A stretch of 64,000 bases of DNA from Kineococcus aurantiacus. GTDB lineage: Bacteria; Actinomycetota; Actinomycetes; Actinomycetales; Kineococcaceae. The position numbers and the translations under genes are program-made. The notes beneath the pieces were generated by a model that was not told the origin of the DNA, made no database searches, and worked only from the letters and a program-made list of their open reading frames with translations. The stretch spans positions 2,604,001 through 2,668,000 of the forward strand of contig NZ_JACCBB010000001.1 of NCBI RefSeq assembly GCF_013409345.1. Direction: 5' to 3'. The stretch's first letter is position 1, and each line of letters opens with the position of its first letter. Below are positions 5,738 through 43,789 of this stretch, one piece after another.

Positions 5738-6544
5738 ATGGGACCCGACACCCGACCCTTCGCCGTGATCACCGGTGCCTCGACCGGCATCGGCCTGGAG
5801 CTGGCGCGTGAGTTCGTCACCGGCGGCTACGACGTGCTCGTCGCGGCCGAGGACGACCGCATCGCGCAGGTGCCCGCCCAGCTGGCGGGGGAGGCCGGCG
5901 CTGACGGCCGCGTGGAGGCGGTGCAGGTCGACCTCGCGCAGGACGGCGGCGTGGAGCGCCTGTGGGCGGCGGCGACCGCCGGCGGCCGCGTCGTGGACGC
6001 CGTCGCGCTGCACGCCGGGGTGGGGGTCGGCGGGGAGTTCGTCGACACCCCGCTGGGCGACGAGCAGCGCATGATCGCGCTGAACGTGCAGTCCGTGGTG
6101 CACCTCGCGAAGCTGGCCGCGAGCCACATGAGCGCCCGGGGCGGGGGGAAGCTGCTGTTCACCTCCTCGCTGGCTGCCCGCGTCCCGGCCCCCTACCAGG
6201 CCGTGTACGGGGCGACGAAGGCGTTCGTGCAGTCCCTGGCCCAGTCGCTGCGCCAGGAGCTGGACCAGCGCGGGATCACGGTCACGGCCTTCCTGCCCGG
6301 CCCCACCGACACCGAGTTCTTCGAGCGCGCGGGCATGGAGGACACCGCGATGGCCCACTCGTCGGCCAAGGACGACCCGGCCACGGTCGCCCGGCAGGCC
6401 TTCGAGGCGTTCCGGGCCGGCAAGGACCACGCGGTCACCGGCTCGGTGGGCACCAAGCTCCAGGGGGCGCTCGCCAACGTCACCCCGAACGCGCCGCTGG
6501 CCAAGGCCCAGGGCAAGCTCGCCGCACCCGGCTCGGCCGACTGA
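5738..6544 (+). CDS. SDR family NAD(P)-dependent oxidoreductase
   Basis: 268 aa classical short-chain dehydrogenase. The cofactor motif is TGASTGIG near residue 12, the catalytic Ser lies in TSSLAARV and the Tyr-x3-Lys in YGATKAF. Substrate cannot be told from sequence. A GGAGGCGGGC stretch just before ATG 5738 can serve as the ribosome site. The LLM oxidoreductase gene follows in the same direction after 74 bp, so the two could be cotranscribed. It diverges from the HemK-like gene at 5675, with 62 bp for both promoters. Confidence 0.88.
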
Positions 6545-6618
6545 GCGGCGGGCGGAACAGCCCGCCGCCTCCCGTGGTTGCCCCAGGACGGAAGCCTCAC
6601 CGTTCGAAAGGTCGCCCC

Positions 6619-7608
6619 ATGTCGCTCACGCTCTCGGTCCTCGACCTCGCCCCCATCGCCCCGGGGCAGTCGGCGGGCGACAGCATCGCGGCCAGCGTGG
6701 CCCTGGCCCGGGCCGCGGAGGAGCACGGCTACCGCCGCGTCTGGTACGCCGAGCACCACAACATGCCCCACATCGCGTCCTCGGCGCCGGCCGTCCTCAT
6801 CGCCCACGTCGGCGCGCACACGAGCTCCATCCGCCTCGGCGCGGGCGGGGTCATGCTGCCGAACCACTCGCCGCTGGCGATCGCCGAGCAGTTCGGCACC
6901 CTGGAGGCCATGTACCCGGGGCGCATCGACCTCGGGCTCGGGCGGGCGCCCGGGTCGGACGAGGCGACGACCTACGCGCTGCGCCGCGACCCGTCCCAGT
7001 CCGCCCAGTTCCCCGAGGACGTCGCCGAGCTGCGCGCCTACCTCGCCGGGCGCTCCCGCGTCCCCGGCGTCCAGGCCACGCCGGGCAACGGGCTGAACGT
7101 GCCCCTGTACGTCCTGGGTTCCTCCACCTTCGGCGCCCACCTCGCCGCCCGGCTCGGGCTGCCCTACGCCTTCGCCTCGCACTTCGCCCCGCAGCAGCTG
7201 CGGGCCGCCGTCGTGTCGTACCGCAACGAGTTCCAGCCCTCCGAGCAGCTGGCCGAGCCGTACGTCATCGCGGGGGTCAACGTCGTGGCGGCGGACACCA
7301 CGGCCGCGGCGCGCGAGTCCTTCGCGCAGGTGCAGCGGCGCTTCGCCACGTCCCTGTTCGGCCGCGGCCGCACCTTCACCGAGGCCGAGGTCGACATCCT
7401 CATGGAGACCGCCGCGGGGCAGCACGTGCAGCAGATGCAGCACTACTCCGCGGTGGGGACCCCGGGCGACGTCCGCTCCTACCTGGAGGAGTTCCAGCGC
7501 GAGGCCGGTGCGGACGAGCTCATCGTCGCCCACCAGGCGCTGTCCACCGATGCCCGGCTGCGGTCGGTGCGGCTGCTGGCCGAGGCCGTCGAGGGCGCGA
7601 CCGTCTGA
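6619..7608 (+). CDS. LLM class flavin-dependent oxidoreductase
   Basis: 329 aa with a luciferase-like monooxygenase TIM-barrel. Start ATG 6619 begins [37 protein letters not shown] and GLGRAPGSD are characteristic of the YhbW-like LLM subgroup, which binds FMN (or F420 in related groups). No substrate can be assigned. It follows the SDR gene in the same orientation and converges with the HD-domain gene 24 bp downstream of its stop. Confidence 0.88.
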
Positions 7609-32860: not shown

Positions 32861-34339
32861 CTACGGCCGGCGCGCGGCGGTGCCGGTGGTGGTGGGGTGG
32901 AGCAACCGTCCGGCGAGGCCGTGCACGTCGACGCACGGCAGCAGGGGCCCGGTCGCCGAACCGGTCCGCACCAGCGGCGCGCGTTCCTCCGCGGCGGCCT
33001 CGCCGAGGTCCTCGCGCCAGACGGGGCGCTCGATGTCGGACAGACCCTCGACCACGAACCCGAGCCGGCGCGGCTCGGCGTCGGGGTCGGGCGCGGGGGG
33101 CCGCACGAGCAGGACGACCCCGCGGCGGGGGTCCTCCAGCCGGCCCCGGCCGAGGTGCTCGGCCAGGTCCACCAGCGGGACGACGTCGTGCTCGGTGACG
33201 AGGGCGCCCAGGTCCGAGCGGCCCCCGACCCAGGGCACCGGGTCGGGGGGGAAGGGGACCACGCCGTCGACCTGGGCCAGCGGCGTCGTCAGGGTGCCGC
33301 GGGCGCTGAAGACCACGACGGGGTCGTGCAGCGGGACGTCGGCGCCGCCACCCGTCGTCGCCGCCCGCACGGACGTGTTGAGCGAGGTCAGCGCGCTGAT
33401 CTCCGGGTCGGCCAGCACGGCCGCCACGTCGAGCACGAGCGTGTGCCCGTGCGGCAGGCGCGCCACCGCGCGCACGGCGCCGCCGGCCCGGCCGGAACCG
33501 GGCGCGGGGGAGGACCAGGCCCTCGGGGAGACCCGCACGATGTCGAGGGCCTCGTCGAACGCGAGCGCCAGCAGCCCGTGCTCGGAGCGCACCAGCAGGA
33601 CCTGCCACGCCCGGGACGGGTCCGCCGGCGGGAGACCGAGGACCACCAGGGGGTCGACCACGGGCAACCGGACGTCGCCGTGGTCGGTGACGCCCAGGCA
33701 CAGCGCCGAGGACAGCGGTGAGGGGCGCGGGGTGAGGGCGGGCAGCGTCGTCTGGACGTCGGCCACGTCGACGGCCAGCAGCAGCGGCACACCGGAGGCC
33801 GGTGTGCACCGGACGACGAGGTGGGCGGGGTCCTGCGTCGAACCGGTGTCGCCGCCGTCGGCCGCGAACACCGTGCCGCCGAGCTCGCCGGCCGTCGTGG
33901 CCAGGACCCCGGGGTGGCCCAGGACGGCGGCGGGGTCGAGCAGGCTGCCGATCTCACCGGTGCCCGGCCGCGCGAACGTGGCCGTGAACAACCGCGACCC
34001 GGGGTCCGCGACCGGTTGCAGCGCGGCGGTGTCGAGGTCGACGACGTCGTGGACGCCGTCGACGAGCAGCCCCAGCGCCCGTCCCTCGTGGACGAGCACG
34101 ACGACACCCATCGGCGCGCCGGGGCCGTCACCGGACGGGCGGCCGCAGAGGGCGCCGAGGTCGAGGACCGGCAGCACGGAGTCGCGCAGCAGCAGCGCCC
34201 CGACCAGCCCGGGTGCGTCCGTGGGCAGCGCGTCGAAGCGCTCGGGGAGCGGGACGACCTCGCGCAGGACGTCCACGGGCAGGGCGACCAGGGCGTCCTG
34301 CACCCGCAGCAGCCCCACCCGGGTGGAGCCGCGGGTCAC
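32861..34339 (-). CDS. Chemotaxis coupling protein with three CheW-like domains
   Basis: 492 aa. It appears to consist of three tandem CheW-fold units, roughly 1-155, 165-320 and 330-490; each has the LPVLDLGAL / [10 protein letters not shown] / [11 protein letters not shown] type core strand and a preceding V-x-P segment. CheW couples receptors to CheA kinase; multi-CheW proteins are uncommon. Its GTG start overlaps the stop of the MCP gene (GTGA), so receptor and coupler are made together. No CheA, CheB or CheR is nearby. Confidence 0.75.
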
Positions 34340-36396
34340 GGTTCCCCGCTGGTCCGGGCGGCGAGGTCGCCGATGAGGGCGCGGACCACGGCGGAGGTGT
34401 CCTGCTGCAGCTGCGTCGCGCCGGCGATGGTGGAGATCGACTCCGAGGTCTGGGCGACGCTGGCGACGATGTTCTCGAAGGCGTCCTGCGCGGACCGGGA
34501 CACCTCGGCGCCCTCGGCGACGCGCGCCTCGGACTCGGCGATCAGCTCGGCGATCTGCCCGGCGGCCGTGGAGGAGCGCTCGGCCAGTTTCCGCACCTCA
34601 CCCGCCACGACGGAGAAGCCGACACCGTGCTCACCGGCGCGGGCGGCCTCGATGGAGGCGTTGAAGGCCAGCAGGTTCGTCTGGGCCGCGATCTCGGTGA
34701 TGACGCGCACGATCTCGGCGATGGAGCCCGAGGAGCGCCGGATCAGCTCGATGGCGGCCATCGAGCTCTTCAGCGCCTCGAAGCCCGACAGCGCGTTGGT
34801 GTGCGTCTGGTTCGCCAGGTCCCGGGCCTGCACCGCGCTCGTCGCGATCTCGTCGATCGAGTGCGACAGCTCGGCGACCGTCTCGTTCATCTCACCGCTC
34901 TTGCAGGTGATGAGCTGTTCGAGCTGCGCCTGCGCGGTGACGTCGTAGGCGTACTTGACCACCTTGAACGGGTTGCCGCGCAGGTCGAAGATCGGGTTGT
35001 AGGTCGCCTGGATCCACACGTCGCGGTCGTACTTGCCGACCCGGTGGAAGCGCCCGGCGATGAAGTCGCCCTTGCGCAGCCGCAGCCAGAAGTCCCGGTA
35101 CTCGGCGGAGACGCGGTACTCCGGGGAGCAGAACAGGCTGTGGTGCTGGCCCTGCAGCTCCTTGAGGGAGTAGCCCATCGTCCGCAGGAAGTTGTCGTTC
35201 GCCACGAGGATGTTGCCCTCGAGGTCGAACTCGATGACGGCCTGCGCGCGGTCGACGGCCTGGACCCGGCTGGCGTACTCGGCGTTCTGGACGGTGCCGC
35301 CGGTGACGTCCACGGCGTACTTGACGACCTTCAGCGGCCGGCCCTCGGGGTCGAGGATCGGGTTGTAGGTGGCCTGGATGAAGATGTCCCGGCCGTCCTT
35401 GGTGATGCGCCGGTAGGTGCCCTCGTCGAAGTTCCCCTTGGCGAGCTTCTCCCAGAACCGCTGGTACTCCGGCGTCGCCGCGTCCACCGGGTCCACGAAG
35501 AGGCGGTGGTGCTGGCCCTGCACCTCGCTCAGCGAGTAGCCCATCACCTCGAGGAAGTTCTCGTTGGCGTTCAGGACGTGGCCCTCGAGGTCGAACTCGA
35601 TGACGGCCTGCGACCGGTCGATGGCCGCGACGCGCCCTTCCAGCTCCACGCCGCGGCGCGCCGCGTCGGTCACGTCGTAGGCGTACTTGACGACCTTGAC
35701 GACCTTGCCGTCGACCCCGAACACCGGGTTGTAGGTGGCGCGGATCCGGACCTCCTGGCCGAGCGCGCCGTAGCGGGTGAACTCACCCGCCTCGGTGCTG
35801 CCCGAGCGCAGCCGGCGCCAGAACGCGACGTAGTCGCTGCTCGCGGCGTAGGCCGCGTCGCAGAACATGCGGTGGTGCTGGCCGACGACGTCGTCGGACT
35901 CGTAGCCGAGCAGCTCCAGGAGGTTGTCGTTCGCGCGCAGCACGGTGCCGTCGGGGGAGAACTCCACGACGGCCTGCACGCGCTCGACGGCGCGGTTCTT
36001 GCTGCGCAGGTCGTACAGCTCGGCGCGGGCCGCGGTGACGTCGGCGGCCAGGACGAGGGTGGCGGTGGTGCCGTCGACGCGGCGGGAGGAGCAACGGGCC
36101 CAGCGCTCGGCCTCGGCGGCGCCGACCAGCACCTCCAGCGGCTGGGCGCGGTCACCGAGCAGCTCGGCGACGTCACCGTCACCGGGGGCCGTGAACAGGT
36201 CGGACAGCGTGCGCCCGCTCAGTCCCTCCAGGGTCGTGCCGCACAGCTCGGCCGCGCGCGGGTCGGCGTGCAGGACCGCGCCGGTCGCGGAGTCGACCAC
36301 GAAGATCGCCTCGCGCTCGGCGACGAGCGAGGTCAGCGTCTCCTGGAGCGCGGTGGTGCCGAGGTCGACGGCGCGGACGGCCGGGCGAGCGGTCAT
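34336..36396 (-). CDS. Cytoplasmic methyl-accepting chemotaxis protein with repeated PAS domains
   Basis: 686 aa from ATG 36396 (36447 is also open). No TM helix. PAS1 (about 20-110) is divergent; PAS2-PAS4 (about 125-485) are three close copies of about 120 residues, each with an AVxEFxxxGxxLxAN..L..xGY start, a QHHR/S-LF core and an A-TYNP-x[11 protein letters not shown] end. The signalling domain (about 490-686) is short; the hairpin tip reads [27 protein letters not shown] domains of this kind may bind heme, flavin or a small ligand. Read with the CheW-like gene. Confidence 0.88.
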
Positions 36397-36458
36397 GCTG
36401 GTGGATCGGGTGCTCGGGGGGTCGACTTGAGGCGCCCGTGATGGCATAGCCTCCAGGG

Positions 36459-37031
36459 GTGGTGGTGACTGGTGGACAACGCACGACGTACGTCGTCGTC
36501 GACGGCGAGAACCTCGACGCGACGCTGGGCGCGTCGATCCTCGACGGCCGCCCCGGCCCCGAGCAGCGACCGCGCTGGGAACGGCTGCTGAAGTTCGCCC
36601 GCGACACGTTCCAGCAGCAGGCCAAGGGCCTGTTCTTCCTCAACGCCTCCAGCGGTCACCTGCCGATGTCGTTCGTCTCGGCGCTGCTGGCCATCGGCTA
36701 CCAGCCCATCCCGCTCGCGGGGGGCCCGGGGGAGAAGGTCGTCGACATCGGCATCCAGCGCACGCTGGACGCCCTCGTCGACCGCGACGGCGACGTCCTC
36801 CTCGGCTCCCACGACGTCGACTTCCTGCCCCAGGTGGAGCGACTGCTCACGGGGGACCGCCTCGTCGGCATGGTCGGTTTCCGCGAGTTCATGAACTCGC
36901 AGTACGCGCCGCTGGCCGAGCGCGGGCTGAAGGTCTTCGACCTCGAGGACGACGTCCGCGCGTTCAACGTCGTGCTGCCCCGCGTCCGCATCATCCCGCT
37001 GGCCGACTTCGACCCGACCCGCTACCTCTGA
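36459..37031 (+). CDS. NYN-domain (PIN-like) protein, putative ribonuclease
   Basis: 190 aa. Acidic residues of the NYN fold are visible in [16 protein letters not shown] (first strand), [16 protein letters not shown] (middle) and [18 protein letters not shown] (third strand). NYN proteins are metal-dependent endoribonucleases. The start among GTG 36459, 36462 and 36465 cannot be decided. The last 41 bp overlap the 3' end of the ligase gene on the other strand. Function in the cell is unknown. Confidence 0.78.
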
Positions 37032-38523
37032 CCGTCCCGATCGTGTCCGCCTCCCCGGCGGTCTTGTCCTCCCGGTAGCGCACCACGCGCGCGAACCGCA
37101 GGGCCACGCCGCCGGGGTAGCGCGGCGAGCGCTGCACCCCGTCGAAGGCCACCTCGACGACCTGCTCGGGGCGGACGGTCACGACGTGGCCGTCGTCGGC
37201 GACCTGCAGCTCCCGGAACCGCCGCGTCTGCCACTCCAGCACCTCGTCGGTCATGCCCTTGAACGTCTTGCCCAGCATGACGAAGCCCCCGCCGTCGGGG
37301 TCGCGGGCCCCGAGGTGGACGTTCGACAGCCACCCGCTGCGCCGGCCCGACCCGCGCTCCACCGCGAGCACCACCAGGTCCAGCGTGTGGACCGGTTTCA
37401 CCTTCACCCACGCCCCACCCCGGCGGCCCGCCGCGTACGGCGAGGCCAGGTCCTTCACGACGACCCCCTCGTGGCCCCCGGCCACGGCGTCCTCGGCGAA
37501 GGCCGTGGCGCGCGCCGGGTCGGCGGTGACCAGGCGCGGGACGCGGTGGCGCTCGGGCACCAGGGCGTCCAGCACCTCCAGGCGCTCGCGCAGCGCGGTG
37601 TCCAGCAGGTCCGTCCCGTCGGCGTGCAGGACGTCGAAGAAGAACGGGGCCACGGCCGCGCCCGTGGCCTGCGCGGTCCGGGACGCGGTGTCCTGGAACG
37701 GCTGCGGCCGGCCCGCCGCGTCCAGGACGAGCGCCTCGCCGTCGAGCACGAGGTCCCCGCCGGGCAGCTGCGCGACGACCTGCACCACCTCGGGCAGCCG
37801 CGCCGTGACGTCCTCCAGGGTGCGGGTGGCGATGCGCACCTCCCCGCCGCGCCGGTGCACCTGGACGCGGACGCCGTCGAGCTTGGTGTCCACCGCGACC
37901 GGGCCCGCGAACCCCGCGACGGCCTCGGCGACGGTCGTCGCGCTCGCGGCGAGCATGGGCAGCACGGGCCGCCCCACCCGCAGCCCGAACCCGGCCAGCT
38001 CCGCCGCGCCGCCGCGCAGCGCGGCGACGACGGCCTCGACCGTGGAGCCGGCCAGCATCGCCGCCCGCCGCACGTCCTCGGCGGGGACGCCGGCGACCCG
38101 GGCCGCGGCGTCCTGCACGAGGGCGTCCAGCGCGCCCTGGCGCAGCTCACCGGTGACCACGCCCCGCAGCCACCGCTGCTCCTGCGCCGTGGCGGCCGCG
38201 AACAGGTCCCCCACGGCGGCCTCGCGCCGGCCGCGCGACCCCGCGCCCGCCAGGGCGGCGATCGCCTCGAACCGCGCGTCGACGTCGAGGACCGTCAGCG
38301 ACGGGGTGGTGGCCGGGACGGGGAGCTCCGTCAGCGAGCGCCACCCCAGCCCCGTGCGGCGCTGCCGCAGCCCGCCGGCGAGGTGGGCGGCGACGACCGC
38401 GGTCAGCTCGGTGTCGGCGGGGTCCAGGCGGCCCAGCAGGGCGGCCAGGGCGGCGACCTTGGCGGTCCGGGCGCGGGTGGCGGCCACGGCGGCGGAGGTG
38501 GCGACGACGTCGGCGAGCAGCAC
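36991..38523 (-). CDS. ATP-dependent DNA ligase (LigB-like)
   Basis: 510 aa from GTG 38523, the length of mycobacterial LigB. Motif I with the adenylated lysine is VDTKLDGVRVQVHR (Lys214); motif III VLDGEALVLD, IV GHEGVVVKDLASPY and V AWVKVKP follow. N-terminal DNA-binding domain about 1-190, C-terminal OB-fold ending in HVVTVRPEQVVEVAFDGVQRSPRYPGG. It seals nicks using ATP, besides the essential NAD-dependent LigA. It is divergent from the retron; 113 bp separate its start from the a1 arm. Its end overlaps the NYN gene by 41 bp. Confidence 0.92.
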   Translation of the reverse strand: MLLADVVATSAAVAATRARTAKVAALAALLGRLDPADTELTAVVAAHLAGGLRQRRTGLGWRSLTELPVPATTPSLTVLDVDARFEAIAALAGAGSRGRREAAVGDLFAAATAQEQRWLRGVVTGELRQGALDALVQDAAARVAGVPAEDVRRAAMLAGSTVEAVVAALRGGAAELAGFGLRVGRPVLPMLAASATTVAEAVAGFAGPVAVDTKLDGVRVQVHRRGGEVRIATRTLEDVTARLPEVVQVVAQLPGGDLVLDGEALVLDAAGRPQPFQDTASRTAQATGAAVAPFFFDVLHADGTDLLDTALRERLEVLDALVPERHRVPRLVTADPARATAFAEDAVAGGHEGVVVKDLASPYAAGRRGGAWVKVKPVHTLDLVVLAVERGSGRRSGWLSNVHLGARDPDGGGFVMLGKTFKGMTDEVLEWQTRRFRELQVADDGHVVTVRPEQVVEVAFDGVQRSPRYPGGVALRFARVVRYREDKTAGEADTIGTVRGSGSGRSRPAG

Positions 38524-38601
38524 GCCGCCATCGTGCCGCCCACCCACCCCGGCCGCACCGGCACGAGTCCCGCGGCCCCCGGGAGGGGGCCCCGGGACCT
38601 G

Positions 38602-38631
38602 CTGACAGCGCCGGGGCCGGTGTGTGATCGT
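38602..38631 (+). promoter_or_regulatory. Possible promoter of the retron transcript
   Basis: CTGACA (38602-38607) and GATCGT (38626-38631) resemble -35 and -10 boxes with an 18-bp spacer. A start about seven bases on, near 38638, would coincide with the left arm of the a1/a2 repeat. The -10 match is weak, so this is tentative. A separate hairpin (GGCCCCC-GGGA-GGGGGCC, 38574-38591) lies just upstream. Confidence 0.35.
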
Positions 38632-38636
38632 GGGCC

Positions 38637-38817
38637 CGTGCGGTGGAGCCGGTGCGAGAGGGCCCTCCCGGCGCCGGTGCACCGGCGGTGGGGCGGCAGC
38701 TCCGGGGTCACCCCGGGGGCAGCACGACACGTTCGGCACCACGCCGCAGGATCGACCGTGCGCTGCGCGCACTGCGGATCCCGCACCGCGGGACAGGTCG
38801 CCCGGCCCCACCGCACG
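38637..38817 (+). ncRNA. Retron msr-msd RNA with a1/a2 inverted repeats
   Basis: The left arm a1 is CGTGCGGTGGAGCCGG at 38637-38652, then a bulged T and GCGA to 38657. The right arm a2 is TCGC at 38798-38801 followed by CCGGCCCCACCGCACG at 38802-38817. They pair over 20 bp with one mismatch and one bulge. a2 ends one base before the RT start, where retron a2 repeats belong. Inside are several hairpins: palindromes at 38658-38667 and 38672-38687, CCGGGG-TCA-CCCCGG (38702-38716), CGGC-N5-GCCG (38734-38746), GTGCGC-TGC-GCGCAC (38758-38772) within CCGCA/TGCGG, and TCCCGC-ACC-GCGGGA (38779-38793). The branching G would follow a1, G58 region (38658) being a candidate. The msr/msd boundary cannot be fixed by eye. 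Confidence 0.75.
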
Positions 38818-38818
38818 C

Positions 38819-40138
38819 GTGGCTGAACCCGACGCGGTCGCCGCGGCGCTCGCGGCGGCGTTCCTCGACGGCCCGTGGACGGCGGACGCCCTGACGGCCC
38901 GCGCCCGCGAGGCCGTGGGGGTGCCGCGGGCGCGGTGGGTCGCGCGGCTGGCGGGGGAGGTGACCGGGCGGTTCGGCACCCCGCCGCTGGACGCCCCGCG
39001 CGAGCTGCGCGCCGCCGTCGCCGGTTCGCCCGCCTACGCCGGGGCCCGCGACGCGGCGCGCCGGGCGGGCCGGCCGCTGCGGGTGGCGCACCTGGCGACG
39101 GGCACGACCCGGATGGGGCGCAACCGGTTCTCGGTCCCGCCGCTGGACACCGTCGACGACCTGGCCGCGTTCTGCGGCCTCGACCCCGCGCAGCTGGACT
39201 GGTTCGCCGACGTCCACCGCTTCCAGGTCCGCGCGGGCGGTTCGGCGCTGCACCACTACCGGGCCCGCTGGGTCGCCAAGCGCGGTGCGCCGCGGCTGCT
39301 GGAGGCGCCCAAGCCGCGGTTGAAGGCCGTGCAGCGCAAGGTGCTGCACGAGGTCCTCGACCGCTTCCCCGTGCACGACGCCGCGCACGGTTTCGTGCCC
39401 GGGCGCTCCCCGGTGACCGGGGCCTGGGACCACGTGCTGGCCCGGACCGTCGTGCGGTTCGACCTGGAGGGTTTCTTCGCCTCCGTGCCGGCGGCGCGCG
39501 TCCACGGGACGTTCCGGTCCACGGGGTACCCCGAACCCGTCGCGCACCTGCTGACCGGGCTCGTGACGCACGTGACCCCGCTGCGGGACCTGCGGGCGAT
39601 GCCCGACGGAGGTTCCGCGGAGGCCCGGCACCGGTTGCGGCGCAACCTGTCCCACGCCCACCTGCCGCAGGGTGCCCCGACCTCGCCGGCGCTGGCGAAC
39701 CTGTGCGCGCGGGGCCTGGACGCCCGCCTCGACGGGCTGGCGCGGGTCCTGGGCGCGACGTTCACCCGCTACGCCGACGACCTGACGTTCTCCTCCACGA
39801 CGGGCCTGGACCCGGTGCGCCTGCACCGCGCGGTCCGCGCGGTCGTCGCCGACGAGGGGTTCACGCTGAACCCGGCGAAGACGCGGGTGCGGGGTGCCGG
39901 TTCCCGCCAGGTCGTGACGGGGCTGGTCGTCAACGAGCGCCCGAACGTCCCCCGCGAGGAGTTCGACCGGCTCAAGGCCGTCCTGCACAACTGCGTGCGG
40001 CACGGGCCCACGAGCCAGGACCGGGAGGGCCACCGGGACTTCCGGGCGCACCTGCTGGCCCGGGTGGCGCGCGTGGAGTCGGTCAACCCCGCGAAGGGGA
40101 GGCGGCTGCGGAGGAGCTTCGAGCAGATCGCGTGGTGA
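38819..40138 (+). CDS. Retron-type reverse transcriptase (Mx162-like)
   Basis: 439 aa from GTG 38819. An N-terminal extension of about 145 residues, then the RT: WVAKRGAPRLLEAPKPRLKAVQ (150-171), HGFVPGRS (190-197), VRFDLEGFFASVP (catalytic Asp215), HLPQGAPTSP (281-290), the active-site TRYADDLTFS (YADD 318-321) and NPAKTR followed by RQVVTGLVVN, whose VTG is a retron mark. The order and wording, including LDxxAQLDWFADVHR before the RT and the NPAKGR at the C-terminus, recall the Myxococcus Mx162 and Stigmatella Sa163 retron RTs. It copies its own ncRNA into msDNA. It is not a group II intron RT: no maturase or HNH domain. The last 56 bp overlap the DUF3817 gene on the other strand. Confidence 0.93.
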   Translation: MAEPDAVAAALAAAFLDGPWTADALTARAREAVGVPRARWVARLAGEVTGRFGTPPLDAPRELRAAVAGSPAYAGARDAARRAGRPLRVAHLATGTTRMGRNRFSVPPLDTVDDLAAFCGLDPAQLDWFADVHRFQVRAGGSALHHYRARWVAKRGAPRLLEAPKPRLKAVQRKVLHEVLDRFPVHDAAHGFVPGRSPVTGAWDHVLARTVVRFDLEGFFASVPAARVHGTFRSTGYPEPVAHLLTGLVTHVTPLRDLRAMPDGGSAEARHRLRRNLSHAHLPQGAPTSPALANLCARGLDARLDGLARVLGATFTRYADDLTFSSTTGLDPVRLHRAVRAVVADEGFTLNPAKTRVRGAGSRQVVTGLVVNERPNVPREEFDRLKAVLHNCVRHGPTSQDREGHRDFRAHLLARVARVESVNPAKGRRLRRSFEQIAW

Positions 40139-40439
40139 GCCCGCCCCGGCGCAGCATCCAGCGCTCGAAGACGACCGTCCCGAACGGCGGGACCCCCGCG
40201 GCCAGGCCCGCCAGGACGTTCCCCGGGCTCCAGCGCAGGGCGAGGCCGGCCCAGACCGTCGAGACCAGGTAGACGACGAAACCGATGCCGTGGACCATGC
40301 CCACGACGGGGACGCCGCCCTCGTGGGGGGCGTGCACGACCCACTTCAGGAACATGGCGATGAGCAGCGCGGTCCACGAGATCGCCTCGAACGTCGCGAT
40401 GACTCGGAACCAGCGGGCGGCGAGCGGCCCGGACGTCAT
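40083..40439 (-). CDS. DUF3817 family membrane protein
   Basis: 118 aa from ATG 40439 with AGGAGGAG upstream. Three TM helices; FRVIATFEAISWTALLIAMFLKW and GMVHGIGFVVYLVSTVWAGL are the typical DUF3817 stretches. Function unknown. The 3' end runs 56 bp into the RT gene from the other side, adding a Ser/Arg-rich tail that may be a lengthened terminus after a stop was lost. Confidence 0.85.
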   Translation of the reverse strand: MTSGPLAARWFRVIATFEAISWTALLIAMFLKWVVHAPHEGGVPVVGMVHGIGFVVYLVSTVWAGLALRWSPGNVLAGLAAGVPPFGTVVFERWMLRRGGLTTRSARSSSAAASPSRG

Positions 40440-40530: not shown

Positions 40531-42789
40531 TCAGCGCGTGAGCGCCTCGTCGTGCCGGGTGTCGTCCCCGGCGTGCCCCACCCGCCGCAGGTACCCGGGG
40601 ACGTCCGCGGCGCCCATGGGCGTCCCGAACCAGTGCCCCTGCGCGCGGTGCACCCCCAGGGCCCGCAGCGGCGCGACCTGCTCGGCGCGCTCGACGCCCT
40701 CGGCGAGGATCCCCACGTCCATGGCCCGGCACAGGGCCGCGATCCCGTCGAGCAGCGAGCTGTCGCCGCCGGTGGCCAGCGCCGTGAGGGACCGGTCGAG
40801 CTTCACGGTCGAGACGGGGAACCGGCGCATGTACGACAGGGACGTGTAGCCGATGCCGAAGTCGTCGAGGTCGAGGCGGAAACCGGCGGCGACGACCTCG
40901 CGCAGCGACGCCGCGATGCGGGGGTCGTCGGGCAGTTCCTCGTGCTCGGTGATCTCCAGGTGGATGCGCCCGGGGCGGATCCCGTGCCGGGCGGCGAGGT
41001 CGCTGATCCACCGGCTCATGCCGTGCCGGTGCAGGCTCCCGACGCCGAGGTTCACCGCCAGGTGCAGCCCGCCCAGGCCCAGGGAGTCCCAGTGCGCCAG
41101 GTCGGCCACGGCGCGGGAGGCGACGTGCTCGTCGAGCCGGGCGCCCAGGCCGGCGGCCTCGACCTGGGGCAGGAACTCGTCCGGCGTGACCAGCCCGGCG
41201 CGGGGGTGGTGCCAGCGGACGAGGGCCTCGACGCCGACGACCCGCGGGTGGTCGCCGTCCTGCGGCCCGTCGAGCGCCACGATCGGCTGGTGCAGGACGA
41301 CCAGCTCGCCCACGTCCTCGGGGCGGCCGTCCTGCAGCAGCAGGTGGCGCAGCTCCTGCTGCATCACCAGGGCGCCGAGGACCTTCTCGCGCAGCTGCGG
41401 CCGGTAGACCTGGGCGCGGCCCTTGCCGGCCTGCTTGGCGGCGTACATGGCGATGTCGGCGTCCACGAGGGCCTCGTCGAAGGCGACGCCGTCGCGCAGC
41501 GGGGCGATGCCGATGCTGGCGCTGACCTGGTACGGCAGGCCGCTGAACTCGAACGGGGTGTCCAGCGCCGTCAGCAGCAGGTCCGCGGGGCCCTCCTCGT
41601 CGTGCGGGGGCGTCCACACCACGACGATGAACTCGTCGCCGCCGGTGCGCGAGACCACCCCGTGGGTCCCGACGGCGCCCCGCAGCCGGGTGGCCACCTC
41701 CACGAGCAGGGCGTCGCCCACGGCGTGACCGCGGGTGTCGTTGATCTGCTTGAAGTCGTCGAGGTCGACCAGGCACAGGTGCAGGTCCTCACCGCGCAGC
41801 CGCTGCCGCAGCGCGTGGGCGGCGCCGGGCAGGCCGCGGCGGTTGACGAGGTCGGTCAGCGGGTCGCGGTCGGCGCTGCGCTCGGCGCGGCGCACGGCCA
41901 GGGCGGCCAGCGCCACCCCCGCGCAGGCCAGGACGTAGCCGCTGGGGGCCACGACGGCGACGGCGACGTCGGGCAGGACGCCCAGCACGCCCAGCAGCCA
42001 CAGGACGGGCACGGCGCAGAAGACGGGCAGGACGCTGAGCAGCCGCTGCCCCTCCCCGCGCAGGTTCCCGCCGGCGTAGGGGCTGCCGAAGTGCCGCATG
42101 CTCGGGTGGGCCGCGGCGGCGGCCAGCGCGACGACGGCCAGGCACTGCCCGCCCTGCAGCAGGGCCCGGCCGCCGGTCAGCAGGTCGGCGCGGGCGGTGA
42201 CCAGCGCGGAGACGGCCAGCAGCCCCCCGCCGGCCAGCAGCACCAGGGCGGTGGCCGGGGCCATGCCGTGCCGGGTGGCGAAGATCCGCAGCAGCACGAT
42301 GACCAGGACGATGTCGGCGCCCGTCCCCACCGCGACGGCCGGGTCCTCGACGAGCCCGGCGGTGCGCAGCATCCCCAGCGCCTGCACGACGAGGAGGGCG
42401 CCCGCGCCCACCGTCAGCAGCACGTCCGGCCACGTCGCGCGGACCTGCCCCGCGGGGCGGCGCAGGGTGCGCACGACGAACGGGACGAGGGCCAGGGCGG
42501 CGACCTGGACGGCCACGACGCTCCAGCGGGCCACCGGCGCCGTCCCGGTGGCGGTCAGCGCCAGGCTCCCGGCGAGGCCGGTGCCGACGACGGTGAGCAC
42601 GGCGGCCCACGCCCGCCGCAGCGCGGGGCGGTGCCGGCGGACGCCGCGGGCGGCGACCGCGAAGGCCCCCAGGTGCACCAGCAGCGCCGCGCCGTCGGCG
42701 GTGCGGCTGCCCGCCGTCCCGGGCAGGAGACCGACGACGACGCTCAGGGCGACCAGCACCCCGAGCACCGCGGTGTCCCGCTTGGACAT
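40531..42789 (-). CDS. Membrane GGDEF-EAL cyclic-di-GMP protein
   Basis: 752 aa from ATG 42789 with GAGGGGG upstream. About nine N-terminal TM helices (residues about 5-290), then GGDEF (RTGGDEF intact; DLDDFKQINDTRGHAVGD) and EAL (GVEALVRWHHP, LHLAVNLGV, ITEHEELPDD, DDFGIGYTSLSYM, AEGVERAEQ). Both active sites look complete, so it could make and degrade c-di-GMP. The inhibitory RxxD site before GGDEF is missing. It diverges from the F420 oxidoreductase gene at 42932. Confidence 0.92.
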   Translation of the reverse strand: MSKRDTAVLGVLVALSVVVGLLPGTAGSRTADGAALLVHLGAFAVAARGVRRHRPALRRAWAAVLTVVGTGLAGSLALTATGTAPVARWSVVAVQVAALALVPFVVRTLRRPAGQVRATWPDVLLTVGAGALLVVQALGMLRTAGLVEDPAVAVGTGADIVLVIVLLRIFATRHGMAPATALVLLAGGGLLAVSALVTARADLLTGGRALLQGGQCLAVVALAAAAAHPSMRHFGSPYAGGNLRGEGQRLLSVLPVFCAVPVLWLLGVLGVLPDVAVAVVAPSGYVLACAGVALAALAVRRAERSADRDPLTDLVNRRGLPGAAHALRQRLRGEDLHLCLVDLDDFKQINDTRGHAVGDALLVEVATRLRGAVGTHGVVSRTGGDEFIVVVWTPPHDEEGPADLLLTALDTPFEFSGLPYQVSASIGIAPLRDGVAFDEALVDADIAMYAAKQAGKGRAQVYRPQLREKVLGALVMQQELRHLLLQDGRPEDVGELVVLHQPIVALDGPQDGDHPRVVGVEALVRWHHPRAGLVTPDEFLPQVEAAGLGARLDEHVASRAVADLAHWDSLGLGGLHLAVNLGVGSLHRHGMSRWISDLAARHGIRPGRIHLEITEHEELPDDPRIAASLREVVAAGFRLDLDDFGIGYTSLSYMRRFPVSTVKLDRSLTALATGGDSSLLDGIAALCRAMDVGILAEGVERAEQVAPLRALGVHRAQGHWFGTPMGAADVPGYLRRVGHAGDDTRHDEALTR

Positions 42790-42931
42790 CGGCCCCCTCG
42801 TTCCGCTCGTTCCTCGACCGCCCGACCACGGAGTCTTCGACGGGACGGCGACCGGACTCATTCGGCCGAACAGGTGCGTCGGGGGTGGACAGGTGGGGAA
42901 CACCTCCCCGCGGGGCGGGGTTGCCGCGGTC

Positions 42932-43789
42932 GTGAGCGAACCCTTGATCAGCTTGTGGGGCGGCGGCCCGTGGCAGGACCCGGCACGGGCCGCGGAGGCC
43001 CGGGAGGTGGCGGCCGAGCTGGAGGAGCTGGGGTTCCACCGGTTGTGGTTCTCCGGCGGGTTCGGCGACGGGGTCCTGCCAGCCTTCGGCGAGCTGCTCG
43101 CCGCGACGCGCACGCTCGGGGTGGCCAGCGGGATCGTCAGCATCTGGACCGCGACGCCGGAGCAGTCGGCGCGCGCGTTCGCGGAGCTGGAGGCCGCGCA
43201 CCCGGGCCGGTTCCTGCTGGGGCTGGGCAACTCCCACGCCCCGGCGGTCGAGGGCCGGGGGGGCCGGTACGACAAGCCGTACTCGCGGACGGTGGACTAC
43301 CTCGACGCGCTCGGCGGGCGGGTCCCGCGCGAGCGTCTCGTCCTGGCCGCGCTGGGGCCCCGGATGCTGGAGCTGGCCCGTGAGCGCACCCTCGGCGCCC
43401 ACCCCTACTTCGTGACGCCCGAGCACACGGCGCTGGCGCGCGAGGCGCTGGGGGAGGGGTCGTGGCTGGCGCCCGAGGTCGCCGTCGTCCTGGACGCCGA
43501 CGCCGCCGGCGCGCGCGCCACGGCCCGCGAGCACCTGGCGACCTACCTGCAGCTGCCGAACTACACGAACAACCTGCGCCGCCTGGGCTGGGGCGACGAC
43601 GACCTGCTGCACGGCGGCAGCGACCGCCTCGTCGACGCGCTGGTGCCCTGGGGCCCGCAGGAGCGGGTCGCGGCCGGGGTGCGCCGGCACGTCGAGGCGG
43701 GCGCCGACGAGGTCGCGGTGCAGGTGCTCGGCGGGCGCGGGGACTTCCCCCGGGCCGCGTTCCGGGAGCTGGCGGCGGCGCTGGTCTGA
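42932..43789 (+). CDS. LLM class F420-dependent oxidoreductase
   Basis: 285 aa from GTG 42932. Luciferase-like barrel with LEELGFHRLWFSGGFGDGVLP at the start, ASGIVSIWTATPEQSARAFAELEAAHPGRFLLGLGNSHAP, and an ending ADEVAVQVLGGRG. This matches the TIGR03620-type F420-dependent group found in Actinobacteria. Substrate unknown. The CDF gene converges 14 bp after its stop. Confidence 0.88.
   Translation: MSEPLISLWGGGPWQDPARAAEAREVAAELEELGFHRLWFSGGFGDGVLPAFGELLAATRTLGVASGIVSIWTATPEQSARAFAELEAAHPGRFLLGLGNSHAPAVEGRGGRYDKPYSRTVDYLDALGGRVPRERLVLAALGPRMLELARERTLGAHPYFVTPEHTALAREALGEGSWLAPEVAVVLDADAAGARATAREHLATYLQLPNYTNNLRRLGWGDDDLLHGGSDRLVDALVPWGPQERVAAGVRRHVEAGADEVAVQVLGGRGDFPRAAFRELAAALV

What the first reader, a model, noticed from the sequence alone, without database searches (positions are those of the whole stretch)
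38637..40138. A retron: msr-msd RNA with a1/a2 repeat directly before a retron-type reverse transcriptase
Seen: RT with YADD, LPQG and VTG motifs; an inverted repeat of 20 bp (one mismatch, one bulge) at 38637-38657 and 38798-38817 bracketing about 140 bp of hairpins; the right arm ends one base before the RT start. Known: retrons place a2 at the 3' end of the ncRNA, often against the RT gene, and their RTs carry VTG. The protein resembles the myxobacterial Mx162/Sa163 RTs. An actinobacterial retron of that type is, as far as I know, little studied.
Basis: partly seen in the sequence, partly recalled or inferred. Interest (0 to 1): 0.9.

Follow-up and report, generated by a model that had tools for sequence, protein, structure and literature searches.

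The report
Actinobacterial retron without linked effector
This is a retron, a reverse transcriptase with its own structured template RNA; the same RNA design lies beside related enzymes in several bacterial phyla, and here the two sit in the chromosome without the partner gene that most studied retrons carry.

Summary
Alone, the repeat is only weakly better than chance in GC-rich DNA. Comparison settles it. A covariance model from 13 ncRNAs of other genera gives one significant hit in the window (E 1.9e-9). Two models together match 77 of 86 RT loci. In 57 sequences all 16 modelled a1/a2 pairs show compensatory changes. The best PDB matches are retron RTs. By anatomy it is a retron; msDNA is untested.

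It is not simply an Mx162/Sa163 relative. The RT belongs to PADLOC's RT_other/RT_outgroup class. Its N-terminal helical domain and its RNA were not found at 20 myxobacterial-family RT loci (one a fragment). In this genus the unit is ncRNA plus RT at one site, empty in RT-less genomes, with no linked effector found. Elsewhere some relatives lie on plasmids, and three Pseudonocardiaceae loci have a pentapeptide-repeat gene overlapping the RT stop. Most likely it is an inherited retron whose RT-msDNA complex is self-contained or acts through an unlinked partner. New variant of a known kind.

The parts
38602..38607 (+). probable promoter -35 element, CTGACA
   Evidence: Sequence; 17 nt before the -10; the same CTGACA-N17-TGATCG is in congener L003. 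Inferred, not tested.
38625..38630 (+). probable promoter -10 element, TGATCG (weak match to consensus)
   Evidence: Sits where 46 of 55 related loci have TANNNT before a1 (letter-shuffle mean 6.2, maximum 15 in 1000). The window itself is one of the 9 without TANNNT.
38637..38817 (+). retron ncRNA (msr-msd), a1 to a2
   Evidence: Covariance model R1, built without this genus: 38641-38813, 56 bits, E 1.9e-9; next best in the window E 2.2. R2, which includes the window: 86.4 bits.
38637..38657 (+). a1 arm
   Evidence: Pairs with a2; 16 of 16 modelled pairs have both-side changes across 57 sequences.
38658..38658 (+). predicted branch (priming) guanosine, directly after a1 (context CGA-G-A)
   Evidence: Closing A-U pair of a1/a2 in 54 of 56 sequences; A17 and G18 invariant in 13 of 13. 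In the cruder hand search a1 ended in A in 40 of 62. The 2'-5' linkage is inferred.
38662..38697 (+). msr hairpin A (variable; 24 nt longer here than in congeners L002 and L004)
   Evidence: MFE fold, alignment.
38700..38718 (+). msr hairpin B, CUCCGGGG-UCA-CCCCGGGG, the most conserved element
   Evidence: Helix 100% paired; three GC pairs the same in 56 of 56.
38719..38797 (+). outer limit of the msd template; RT start next to 38797, stop site unknown
   Evidence: Position between hairpin B and a2; inference from retron anatomy.
38746..38784 (+). msd hairpin (lower stem GGAUC/GAUCC, internal loop, apical GUGCGC-UGC-GCGCAC)
   Evidence: Model helices 6-8: 12 of 12 pairs have both-side changes across 57 sequences.
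38798..38817 (+). a2 arm; one base before the RT start codon
   Evidence: covariation with a1.
38819..40138 (+). retron-type reverse transcriptase, 439 aa, GTG start, no evident ribosome-binding site
   Evidence: Pfam RVT_1 4e-20; PADLOC RT_other 553 bits, RT_outgroup 525 bits; nearest solved structure Ec86 RT.
38834..39064 (+). N-terminal five-helix domain of the RT (residues 6-82)
   Evidence: AlphaFold model of residues 1-107 pLDDT 88.5, whole protein 92.6; no PDB match better than E 8.3.
39770..39781 (+). YADD catalytic motif
   Evidence: invariant in 38 of 38 aligned RTs.
39914..39922 (+). VTG motif (retron region Y)
36991..38529 (-). flanking gene, ATP-dependent DNA ligase; not part of the unit
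   Evidence: Pfam; next to DUF3817 without the RT in congeners L092 and L093; not found near the RT in L090 and L091.
40083..40439 (-). flanking gene, DUF3817 protein, convergent and overlapping the RT end by 56 nt; not part of the unit
   Evidence: Pfam; next to the RT in 5 of 5 other RT-bearing congeners; present in 6 of 6 RT-less genomes.

Best explanation
A genuine retron of the RT_other/RT_outgroup class. A transcript starts at a1 (about 38637) and includes the msr-msd RNA and probably the RT gene. a1 and a2 pair; the RT binds the msr hairpins (A and the near-invariant B). The 2'-OH of G38658, next to the closing A-U pair, primes DNA synthesis. The RT copies the msd from about 38797 leftwards through the hairpin at 38746-38784, giving a hairpin msDNA of roughly 50-80 nt joined to the msr RNA. 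In this genus the unit holds only ncRNA and RT, at one chromosomal site, with no linked effector found. So the RT-msDNA complex most likely either carries its own output through the N-terminal helical domain or acts with an unlinked host protein. Shown here: RNA family, pairing, RT class, fold, fixed site and empty sites. Inferred: promoter, priming base, msDNA, its length and its role.
For: RNA: R1, from 13 sequences of other genera, hits the window at E 1.9e-9. R1 and R2 together match 77 of 86 RT loci, 13 of them R1's own seeds, and 4 of 4 plasmid-borne relatives tested. Covariation: 16 of 16 a1/a2 pairs and 12 of 12 msd pairs with both-side changes, 0 of 500 shuffles as high for the whole structure; 13 of 16 a1/a2 pairs in the 13-sequence MAFFT alignment. 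Own arms are 96% complementary against 47% for arms swapped between loci (62 loci). RT and RNA occur together: the same 4 of 118 genomes of the class, own genome included, have both; 6 of 6 RT-bearing genomes of the genus have the RNA, 0 of 6 RT-less genomes do. A -10 box lies before a1 in 46 of 55. RT: PADLOC RT_other/RT_outgroup; all 38 aligned RTs match both at E <= 1e-20. The 18 best Foldseek PDB hits are retron RTs. No linked effector here: ligase and DUF3817 are neighbours without the unit in L092 and L093; 0 of 8 window ORFs nearby match PADLOC at 1e-5; the downstream neighbour on record in the genus is the convergent DUF3817 gene.
Against: No msDNA has been shown. Fold energy alone is not unusual (z -1.5) and the repeat alone is not rare in shuffles (3 of 8). 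All three NCBIfam retron models that match score below their cut-offs (158 of 600, 158 of 450, 157 of 235 bits). Within the genus the arms barely vary, so covariation rests on other genera. The A5 ends were set at a1/a2 stems found by a pairing search, and A7 is fitted to the model structure. The window's own -10 is weak. No ribosome-binding site is visible. The whole-protein fold match is partial (TM 0.51 by query, rmsd 8.9 A). A linked gene does exist in some relatives: a pentapeptide-repeat gene overlapping the RT stop in L037, L041 and L043, and a shared downstream gene in six Planctomycetota loci. An unlinked effector is not excluded.
Confidence: 0.87

Rival explanations
1. Same retron, but it is an anti-phage defence whose effector is encoded elsewhere in the genome or is a shared host protein; the msDNA complex holds it in check.
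For: By general knowledge studied retrons are mostly defence systems with effectors, and PADLOC lists this RT class among defence proteins. Presence is patchy (RT in 6 of 12 genomes of the family sample), as with many defence genes. Some relatives are on plasmids, and in three Pseudonocardiaceae loci a second gene overlaps the RT stop.
Against: No PADLOC match among 8 ORFs near the window RT nor for five downstream genes of relatives. In this genus one fixed chromosomal site. One scan of viral contigs found no relative; phage records gave only partial hits under 60% identity.
Confidence: 0.37
2. The RT makes msDNA but its N-terminal five-helix domain is itself the effector or sensor, so the system is a single protein plus RNA.
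For: The domain HMM matches RTs labelled Actinomycetota, Pseudomonadota, Acidobacteriota and a few Planctomycetota and Myxococcota (24 of these proteins are its seeds), and the domain is confidently folded.
Against: In most Planctomycetota and several Rhodobacterales RTs the RNA is present although the domain HMM does not match or matches weakly, so the domain is not essential to the pairing of RNA and RT. No recognisable fold.
Confidence: 0.28
3. The RNA is a cis-acting leader that controls translation of the RT, without reverse transcription of it.
For: a2 ends one base before the start codon and no ribosome-binding site is seen, so the a1/a2 stem could hide the start.
Against: In other loci the RT start lies at varying distances from a2, and in L026 the RNA is on the opposite strand. 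The architecture (G after a1, two msr hairpins, long msd hairpin, a2) is that of a retron RNA.
Confidence: 0.05
4. The inverted repeat is a chance feature of 79% GC DNA beside an unrelated RT.
For: Shuffled windows give a similar repeat in 3 of 8 cases; folding z only -1.5.
Against: Covariation and model hits across 77 of 86 loci.
Confidence: 0.01

Closest known systems
PADLOC retron RT classes RT_outgroup (PDLC03740) and RT_other (PDLC02949)
   Same: Full-length match including the N-terminal part (RT_other 553 bits, residues 3-439; RT_outgroup 525 bits, residues 5-439). All 38 aligned RTs match both.
   Different: Nothing tested differs. The tools give no function for these classes, and PADLOC's own msr-msd covariance models could not be searched here.
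Myxobacterial retrons Mx162 / Sa163 (tested through RTs of the family of L085's genome)
   Same: 41-49% identity in the RT core. A review says that Mx162 and Sa163 RTs have an extended N-terminus and were likely inherited vertically (PMC6868368, passages read).
   Different: None of 20 loci shows this N-terminal domain or this RNA at E <= 0.01; L123 among them is a fragment. Three related myxobacterial RTs tested (L081, L082, L085) are nearer PADLOC RT_XIII. No named Mx162 record was compared.
Retron Ec86 (Eco1) RT-msDNA complex, PDB 7v9x
   Same: Best structural match and among the best sequence matches in the PDB. By recall, Ec86 also has an A-U closing pair and the branch G right after a1.
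   Different: 27% identity; Ec86 is solved with its effector (entry title). The window RT is longer (439 aa against chains of 320-349) by its N-terminal part.
PADLOC retron type XIII
   Same: Next best profile (308 bits).
   Different: The 7 loci whose best profile is RT_XIII (L073, L081-L086) are without this RNA; five of them (L081, L083-L086) share an upstream gene.

Membership tests
Retron | RT with YADD and the VTG of region Y | tested here: met
   By recall a region-X NAxxH motif is also common in retron RTs; it is not in this translation and is not universal.
Retron | RT belongs to the retron lineage | tested here: met
   Top 18 Foldseek PDB hits are retron RTs; all 14 PDB sequence hits are retron RTs by molecule name or, for 9kjx and 9n69, by entry title; best PADLOC profiles are retron classes. 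NCBIfam's retron models match below their cut-offs.
Retron | msr-msd RNA next to the RT, with a1/a2 inverted repeat conserved by covariation | tested here: met
Retron | Conserved priming guanosine at the inner end of a1 | tested here: met
   Position and conservation only: A17 and G18 invariant in 13 of 13, A-U closing pair in 54 of 56. Use as the 2'-5' primer not testable.
Retron | Produces branched RNA-linked msDNA | not testable with these tools
   Needs expression and msDNA extraction.
Tripartite anti-phage retron (RT + ncRNA + effector) | Effector gene linked to or fused with the RT | tested here: not met
   For the window and its genus: unit is ncRNA + RT only; no PADLOC match among 8 nearby ORFs. 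A fused effector of unknown type (N-terminal domain) is not excluded. Some relatives have an overlapping pentapeptide-repeat gene.
Mx162/Sa163 group | RT core closely related to myxobacterial retron RTs | tested here: inconclusive
   41-49% identity. In the tree 25 rows, mostly myxobacterial, form a clade (SH-aLRT 91, not starred) in which no row has this RNA. No named Mx162 sequence used.
Mx162/Sa163 group | Shared N-terminal extension | tested here: not met
   Domain HMM: 0 of 20 rows (lowest E 0.81); L123 is a fragment, so 19 are informative.
Mx162/Sa163 group | Shared msr-msd RNA | tested here: not met
   R2: 0 of 20 loci at E <= 0.01; subthreshold matches at E 0.14-0.46 in L112, L113 and L122; L123 has almost no upstream DNA.
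DRT (defence-associated RT) systems | Match to DRT family models | tested here: not met
   Drt2 29.9 bits against cut-off 390, Drt3a 23.3 against 200.

The most novel reading that the evidence does not exclude
A distinct, old class of retron: one msr-msd design with a near-invariant CUCCGGGG/CCCCGGGG hairpin, kept with one RT lineage in genomes labelled Actinomycetota, Pseudomonadota, Planctomycetota, Acidobacteriota and Myxococcota, with no partner gene found common to the class. In this genus it is an inherited two-part unit: either a single-protein retron whose N-terminal helical domain senses or acts, or a domesticated msDNA factory with a cellular rather than an abortive-infection role. 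The pentapeptide-repeat genes coupled to it in some Pseudonocardiaceae would be lineage-specific additions.
Probability: 0.35. Interest if true: 0.75.

Novelty: new variant of a known kind. Interest (0 to 1): 0.52.

Why it matters
In a 2019 review the experimentally validated retron RTs came only from Gamma- and Deltaproteobacteria (PMC6868368, passage read). Here is a well-supported RNA with exact boundaries for an actinobacterial one, plus a covariance model that finds relatives in genomes labelled with at least five phyla. A retron that stays at one site with no linked effector makes the old question of what msDNA does without a toxin directly testable. It is also a small two-part source of DNA that may suit high-GC hosts.

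Tried and rejected
Rfam 15 at gathering threshold on the window and at E <= 10 on 38550-38900: no match. One scan of viral contigs: no relative. Phages: 11 records, all under 60% identity, none covering 80% of the query. Plasmids: 118 records, all under 60% and none covering 80%; my first reading that the class is not on plasmids was wrong: four of the best hits (H1, H3, H4, H6; Burkholderia, Tsukamurella, Dietzia) carry the RNA (R2 E <= 3.4e-13). The GAGAGG motif after a1 as a signature: rejected, rare outside the genus. First stem search with lax scoring gave meaningless long arms, replaced. An 18-sequence mixed-phylum alignment (A4) misaligned a1 and was dropped for A5, 13 of the 86 loci chosen by me for even length (Microbacteriaceae, Arthrobacter and L013, which bears a Vibrio label). 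Ligase as partner: rejected. DUF3817 as partner: rejected, present in 6 of 6 RT-less genomes. An RT relic in L092 (82% over 128 nt, window 40073-40200): unproven, because DUF3817 overlaps that stretch. Conserved minus-strand ORFs at the RT end: mostly antisense to the RT. N-terminal domain against the PDB: nothing better than E 8.3.

Papers: Mestre 2020, a FEMS review of 2021, Rice & Lampson 1995 and Khan 2024 are not held, so I cannot say whether this RNA class is already in print. Searches run: open-licence library only. I saw search listings and term-matched passages of PMC6868368, PMC8934634, PMC9252829, PMC8867640, PMC4244168, PMC12262390 and PMC6498646; a term search in PMC12548924 found nothing. 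No whole paper was read.

Left out before counts: 12 of 106 RT rows in the tree as near-copies or fragments; 12 of 86 loci gave no stem, and of the 74 with one, 62 with stem score 24 or more were used; L026 and L067 of the 57 R1 matches. Three RNAalifold pairs (columns 18-20 with 91-93) were removed by me from the structure used for R1. A7 and R2 hold one doubtful minus-strand row (L067). The 24 seeds of the domain HMM are among the proteins it was scored on.

Full report
OBSERVATION. The window carries an open reading frame 38819-40138 (+), 439 aa from GTG. It has LPQG, YADD and VTG and matches Pfam RVT_1 at 4e-20. Upstream lie a1 38637-38657 and a2 38798-38817, pairing over 19 Watson-Crick pairs with one mismatch and one bulge; the MFE fold of 38630-38822 forms this stem. 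Alone the repeat is not decisive: 3 of 8 shuffled windows had one as good, and the fold z-score is -1.5.

THE RNA IS REAL. I fetched 80 RT loci from named genomes (the best 80 of at least 544) and 5 from other genomes of the genus. Upstream of most lies an RNA of one design: a1, a G after it, hairpin A, hairpin B (CUCCGGGG-NNN-CCCCGGGG), a single-stranded stretch, one long msd hairpin, GACAGG or similar, then a2. A MAFFT alignment of 13 sequences from other genera (A5) gave 45 modelled pairs: 97.4% of cells paired, 25 pairs with both-side changes, 0 of 500 shuffles as high, slid versions far lower; 13 of 16 a1/a2 pairs change on both sides. The ends of these sequences were set at stems found by a pairing search, which favours pairing. 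The model of these 13 (R1), with no sequence of the window's genus, finds 38641-38813 at 56 bits, E 1.9e-9; the next best in the window is E 2.2. R1 matches 57 of 86 sources at E <= 0.1, its 13 seeds included; I discount a minus-strand match in L067 (E 0.07), leaving 56. One of the 56, L026, is on the strand opposite to its RT. On the alignment of the 57, 16 of 16 a1/a2 pairs and 12 of 12 msd pairs have both-side changes; that alignment is fitted to the structure. A second model (R2, from those 57) finds 21 of the other 30 at E <= 3.6e-5: 77 of 86 in all. The nine others: L033 (RT near the contig end, 101 nt upstream of the match), L054 (arms found by hand only), and L073 and L081-L086, which are the seven whose best PADLOC profile is RT_XIII among the ten tested. 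A test that compares loci with each other: in 62 loci the own a1 and a2 are 96% complementary over 12 positions, against 47% when arms are swapped between loci; with 36 dissimilar arms, 96% against 43%.

RNA AND RT OCCUR TOGETHER. In 118 genomes of the class, the RNA (stricter filters) and the RT at E <= 1e-40 are found in the same four, the window's own genome being one; in another, G093, the RT is broken. In the genus, 6 of 6 RT-bearing genomes have the RNA once each, next to the RT. Of 6 RT-less genomes (5 of the genus, 1 of another genus) none has it.

TRANSCRIPTION. A TANNNT box lies 8-24 nt before the first modelled a1 base in 46 of 55 loci, against a mean of 6.2 and a maximum of 15 in 1000 letter shuffles; the set includes near-copies such as 11 Curtobacterium-type loci. 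The window is among the nine without TANNNT; its likely promoter is CTGACA (38602-38607), 17 nt, TGATCG (38625-38630), shared with congener L003. The RNA thus probably begins at a1.

THE PROTEIN. PADLOC's best profiles are RT_other (553 bits) and RT_outgroup (525), then RT_XIII (308); all 38 aligned RTs match the first two at E <= 1e-20. NCBIfam's retron models match below their cut-offs, and DRT models far below theirs. The AlphaFold model from 38 RTs has mean pLDDT 92.6, pTM 0.74; its 18 best PDB matches by Foldseek are retron RTs, led by Ec86 (TM 0.51 by query, 0.70 by target). Residues 6-82 form five helices, confidently modelled on their own, with no PDB match (best E 8.3). An HMM of this domain matches strongly in most Actinomycetota and many Pseudomonadota of the set, weakly or not in most Planctomycetota, Rhodobacterales and Pseudonocardiaceae, and in none of 20 rows of the L085 family.

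KINSHIP. Twelve of 13 genomes of the family of L085's genome (record labelled Myxococcaceae) have RTs 41-49% identical in the core; 20 of the 22 matches became loci. None of the 20 gives an R2 match at E <= 0.01; L123 is a fragment; L112 (the same site as L085) gives E 0.24 upstream of the RT, perhaps a distant cousin RNA. In a tree of 94 RTs (quick method, midpoint root), a clade of 25 rows (SH-aLRT 91) holds no row with this RNA. A group of 66 has it in all but L033, with L054 by hand only; three further RNA-bearing Planctomycetota rows (L063, L074, L079) fall near the 25 on the other side of the weakly supported midpoint root. The N-terminus of L129-L131 looks to me, from memory, like that of Mx162; no named record was compared.

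GENE NEIGHBOURHOOD. In the 5 other RT-bearing genomes of the genus the RT lies next to DUF3817. In RT-less genomes of the genus the site is empty in 4 of 5: in L093 window-like sequence runs to about 38598 and resumes at 40137 about 20 nt later; in L092 about 130 nt of unaligned DNA lie between the ligase side and the DUF3817 side; in L094 and L096 the upstream gene and DUF3817 are neighbours. L095 is too short to tell; L097, of another genus, also has the two as neighbours. So here the unit is ncRNA plus RT and nothing else. None of 8 ORFs around the window RT matches PADLOC at 1e-5.

NEIGHBOURS ELSEWHERE. A raw-ORF comparison of the flanks found no gene common to the class. The widest families examined were ABC transporters and short-chain dehydrogenases at scattered places and ORFs mostly antisense to the RT end. 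Some lineages do have a fixed neighbour: in L037 (Amycolatopsis), L041 and L043 (Crossiella) a pentapeptide-repeat gene overlaps the RT stop codon; in six Planctomycetota loci a gene follows the RT, without a Pfam match in the two examples tested. Neither type of gene matches PADLOC in the examples tested. Four of the best plasmid hits carry the RNA too: two Burkholderia replicons of about 1 Mb, one Tsukamurella and one Dietzia plasmid. So the class moves at times; inheritance with losses is my reading for this genus, and I built no species tree.

MECHANISM. The closing pair of a1/a2 is A-U in 54 of 56 sequences and a G follows it in 13 of 13. A 2019 review places the priming G within or right after this stem, commonly in TAGC, also CAGA, CAGC, GAGC, ACGC (PMC6868368, passage read); here the context is GAGA. 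I infer priming at G38658, copying from about 38797 through the msd hairpin, and a product of roughly 50-80 nt. These steps are not shown.

ROLE. Three readings remain: an unlinked effector (defence), a self-contained protein through the N-terminal domain, or a cellular role. A 2022 review notes that some retrons lack a clear association with effector genes (PMC8867640, passage read), so effector-less retrons as such are known. What seems new to me is the exact RNA, its spread and the clean two-part unit here; I cannot claim it is unpublished, as key papers of 2020 and 2024 were not held.

VERDICT. Retron: confirmed as far as sequence can. Mx162/Sa163 type: not supported beyond the RT core. 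Novelty: new variant of a known kind.

Noticed in passing
L037:7011-7634, L041:6971-7561, L043:6972-7562: In Amycolatopsis and Crossiella a pentapeptide-repeat gene starts a few nt before the end of the RT stop codon; a possible translationally coupled partner in one family.
   Followed up: partly
L132-L135: RTs of this class with the same RNA on Burkholderia replicons of about 1 Mb and on Tsukamurella and Dietzia plasmids.
   Followed up: partly
L013 (whole locus): A contig labelled Vibrio cholerae strain 35D carries an RT and RNA that group with Arthrobacter; probably contamination or mislabelling. L065, labelled Exiguobacterium profundum MAG, likewise groups with Rhodobacteraceae.
   Followed up: no
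L026:5748-5916 (minus) against RT 6001-7296 (plus): In one Solirubrobacterales genome the RNA is on the opposite strand to the RT, while its sister L023 has it in the usual orientation.
   Followed up: partly
L106 and L111 (genome G093): The RT matches in two pieces in different frames with residues about 188-267 unmatched, yet the RNA beside it still matches R1 at E 2.4e-11.
   Followed up: partly
L081, L083, L084, L085, L086 upstream of the RT: RT_XIII-type loci labelled Myxococcota, Verrucomicrobiota, Planctomycetota and Chloroflexota share an upstream gene (491 aa in L086, no Pfam match); a possible type XIII partner.
   Followed up: partly
L038, L045, L051, L058, L059, L062 downstream of the RT: Six Planctomycetota loci share a downstream gene (no Pfam match in L062 and L058), and five (L038, L045, L058, L059, L068) share an upstream one, an M50 peptidase in L045; the RT N-terminus there often starts MGLF instead of the five-helix domain.
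   Followed up: partly
window 40083-40138: The RT and the DUF3817 gene converge and overlap by 56 nt; RT-less L092 still keeps similar sequence here, perhaps a relic of a lost RT.
   Followed up: partly
L085:5297-5450 and L112:3005-3158 (minus): Subthreshold R2 matches (E 0.24) upstream of the RT of one Myxococcaceae-labelled genome, possibly a distant relative of this RNA.
   Followed up: no
window 34336-36447 (-) and 40531-43275 (-): Flanking genes encode a PAS-containing methyl-accepting chemotaxis protein and a GGDEF-EAL protein.
   Followed up: no
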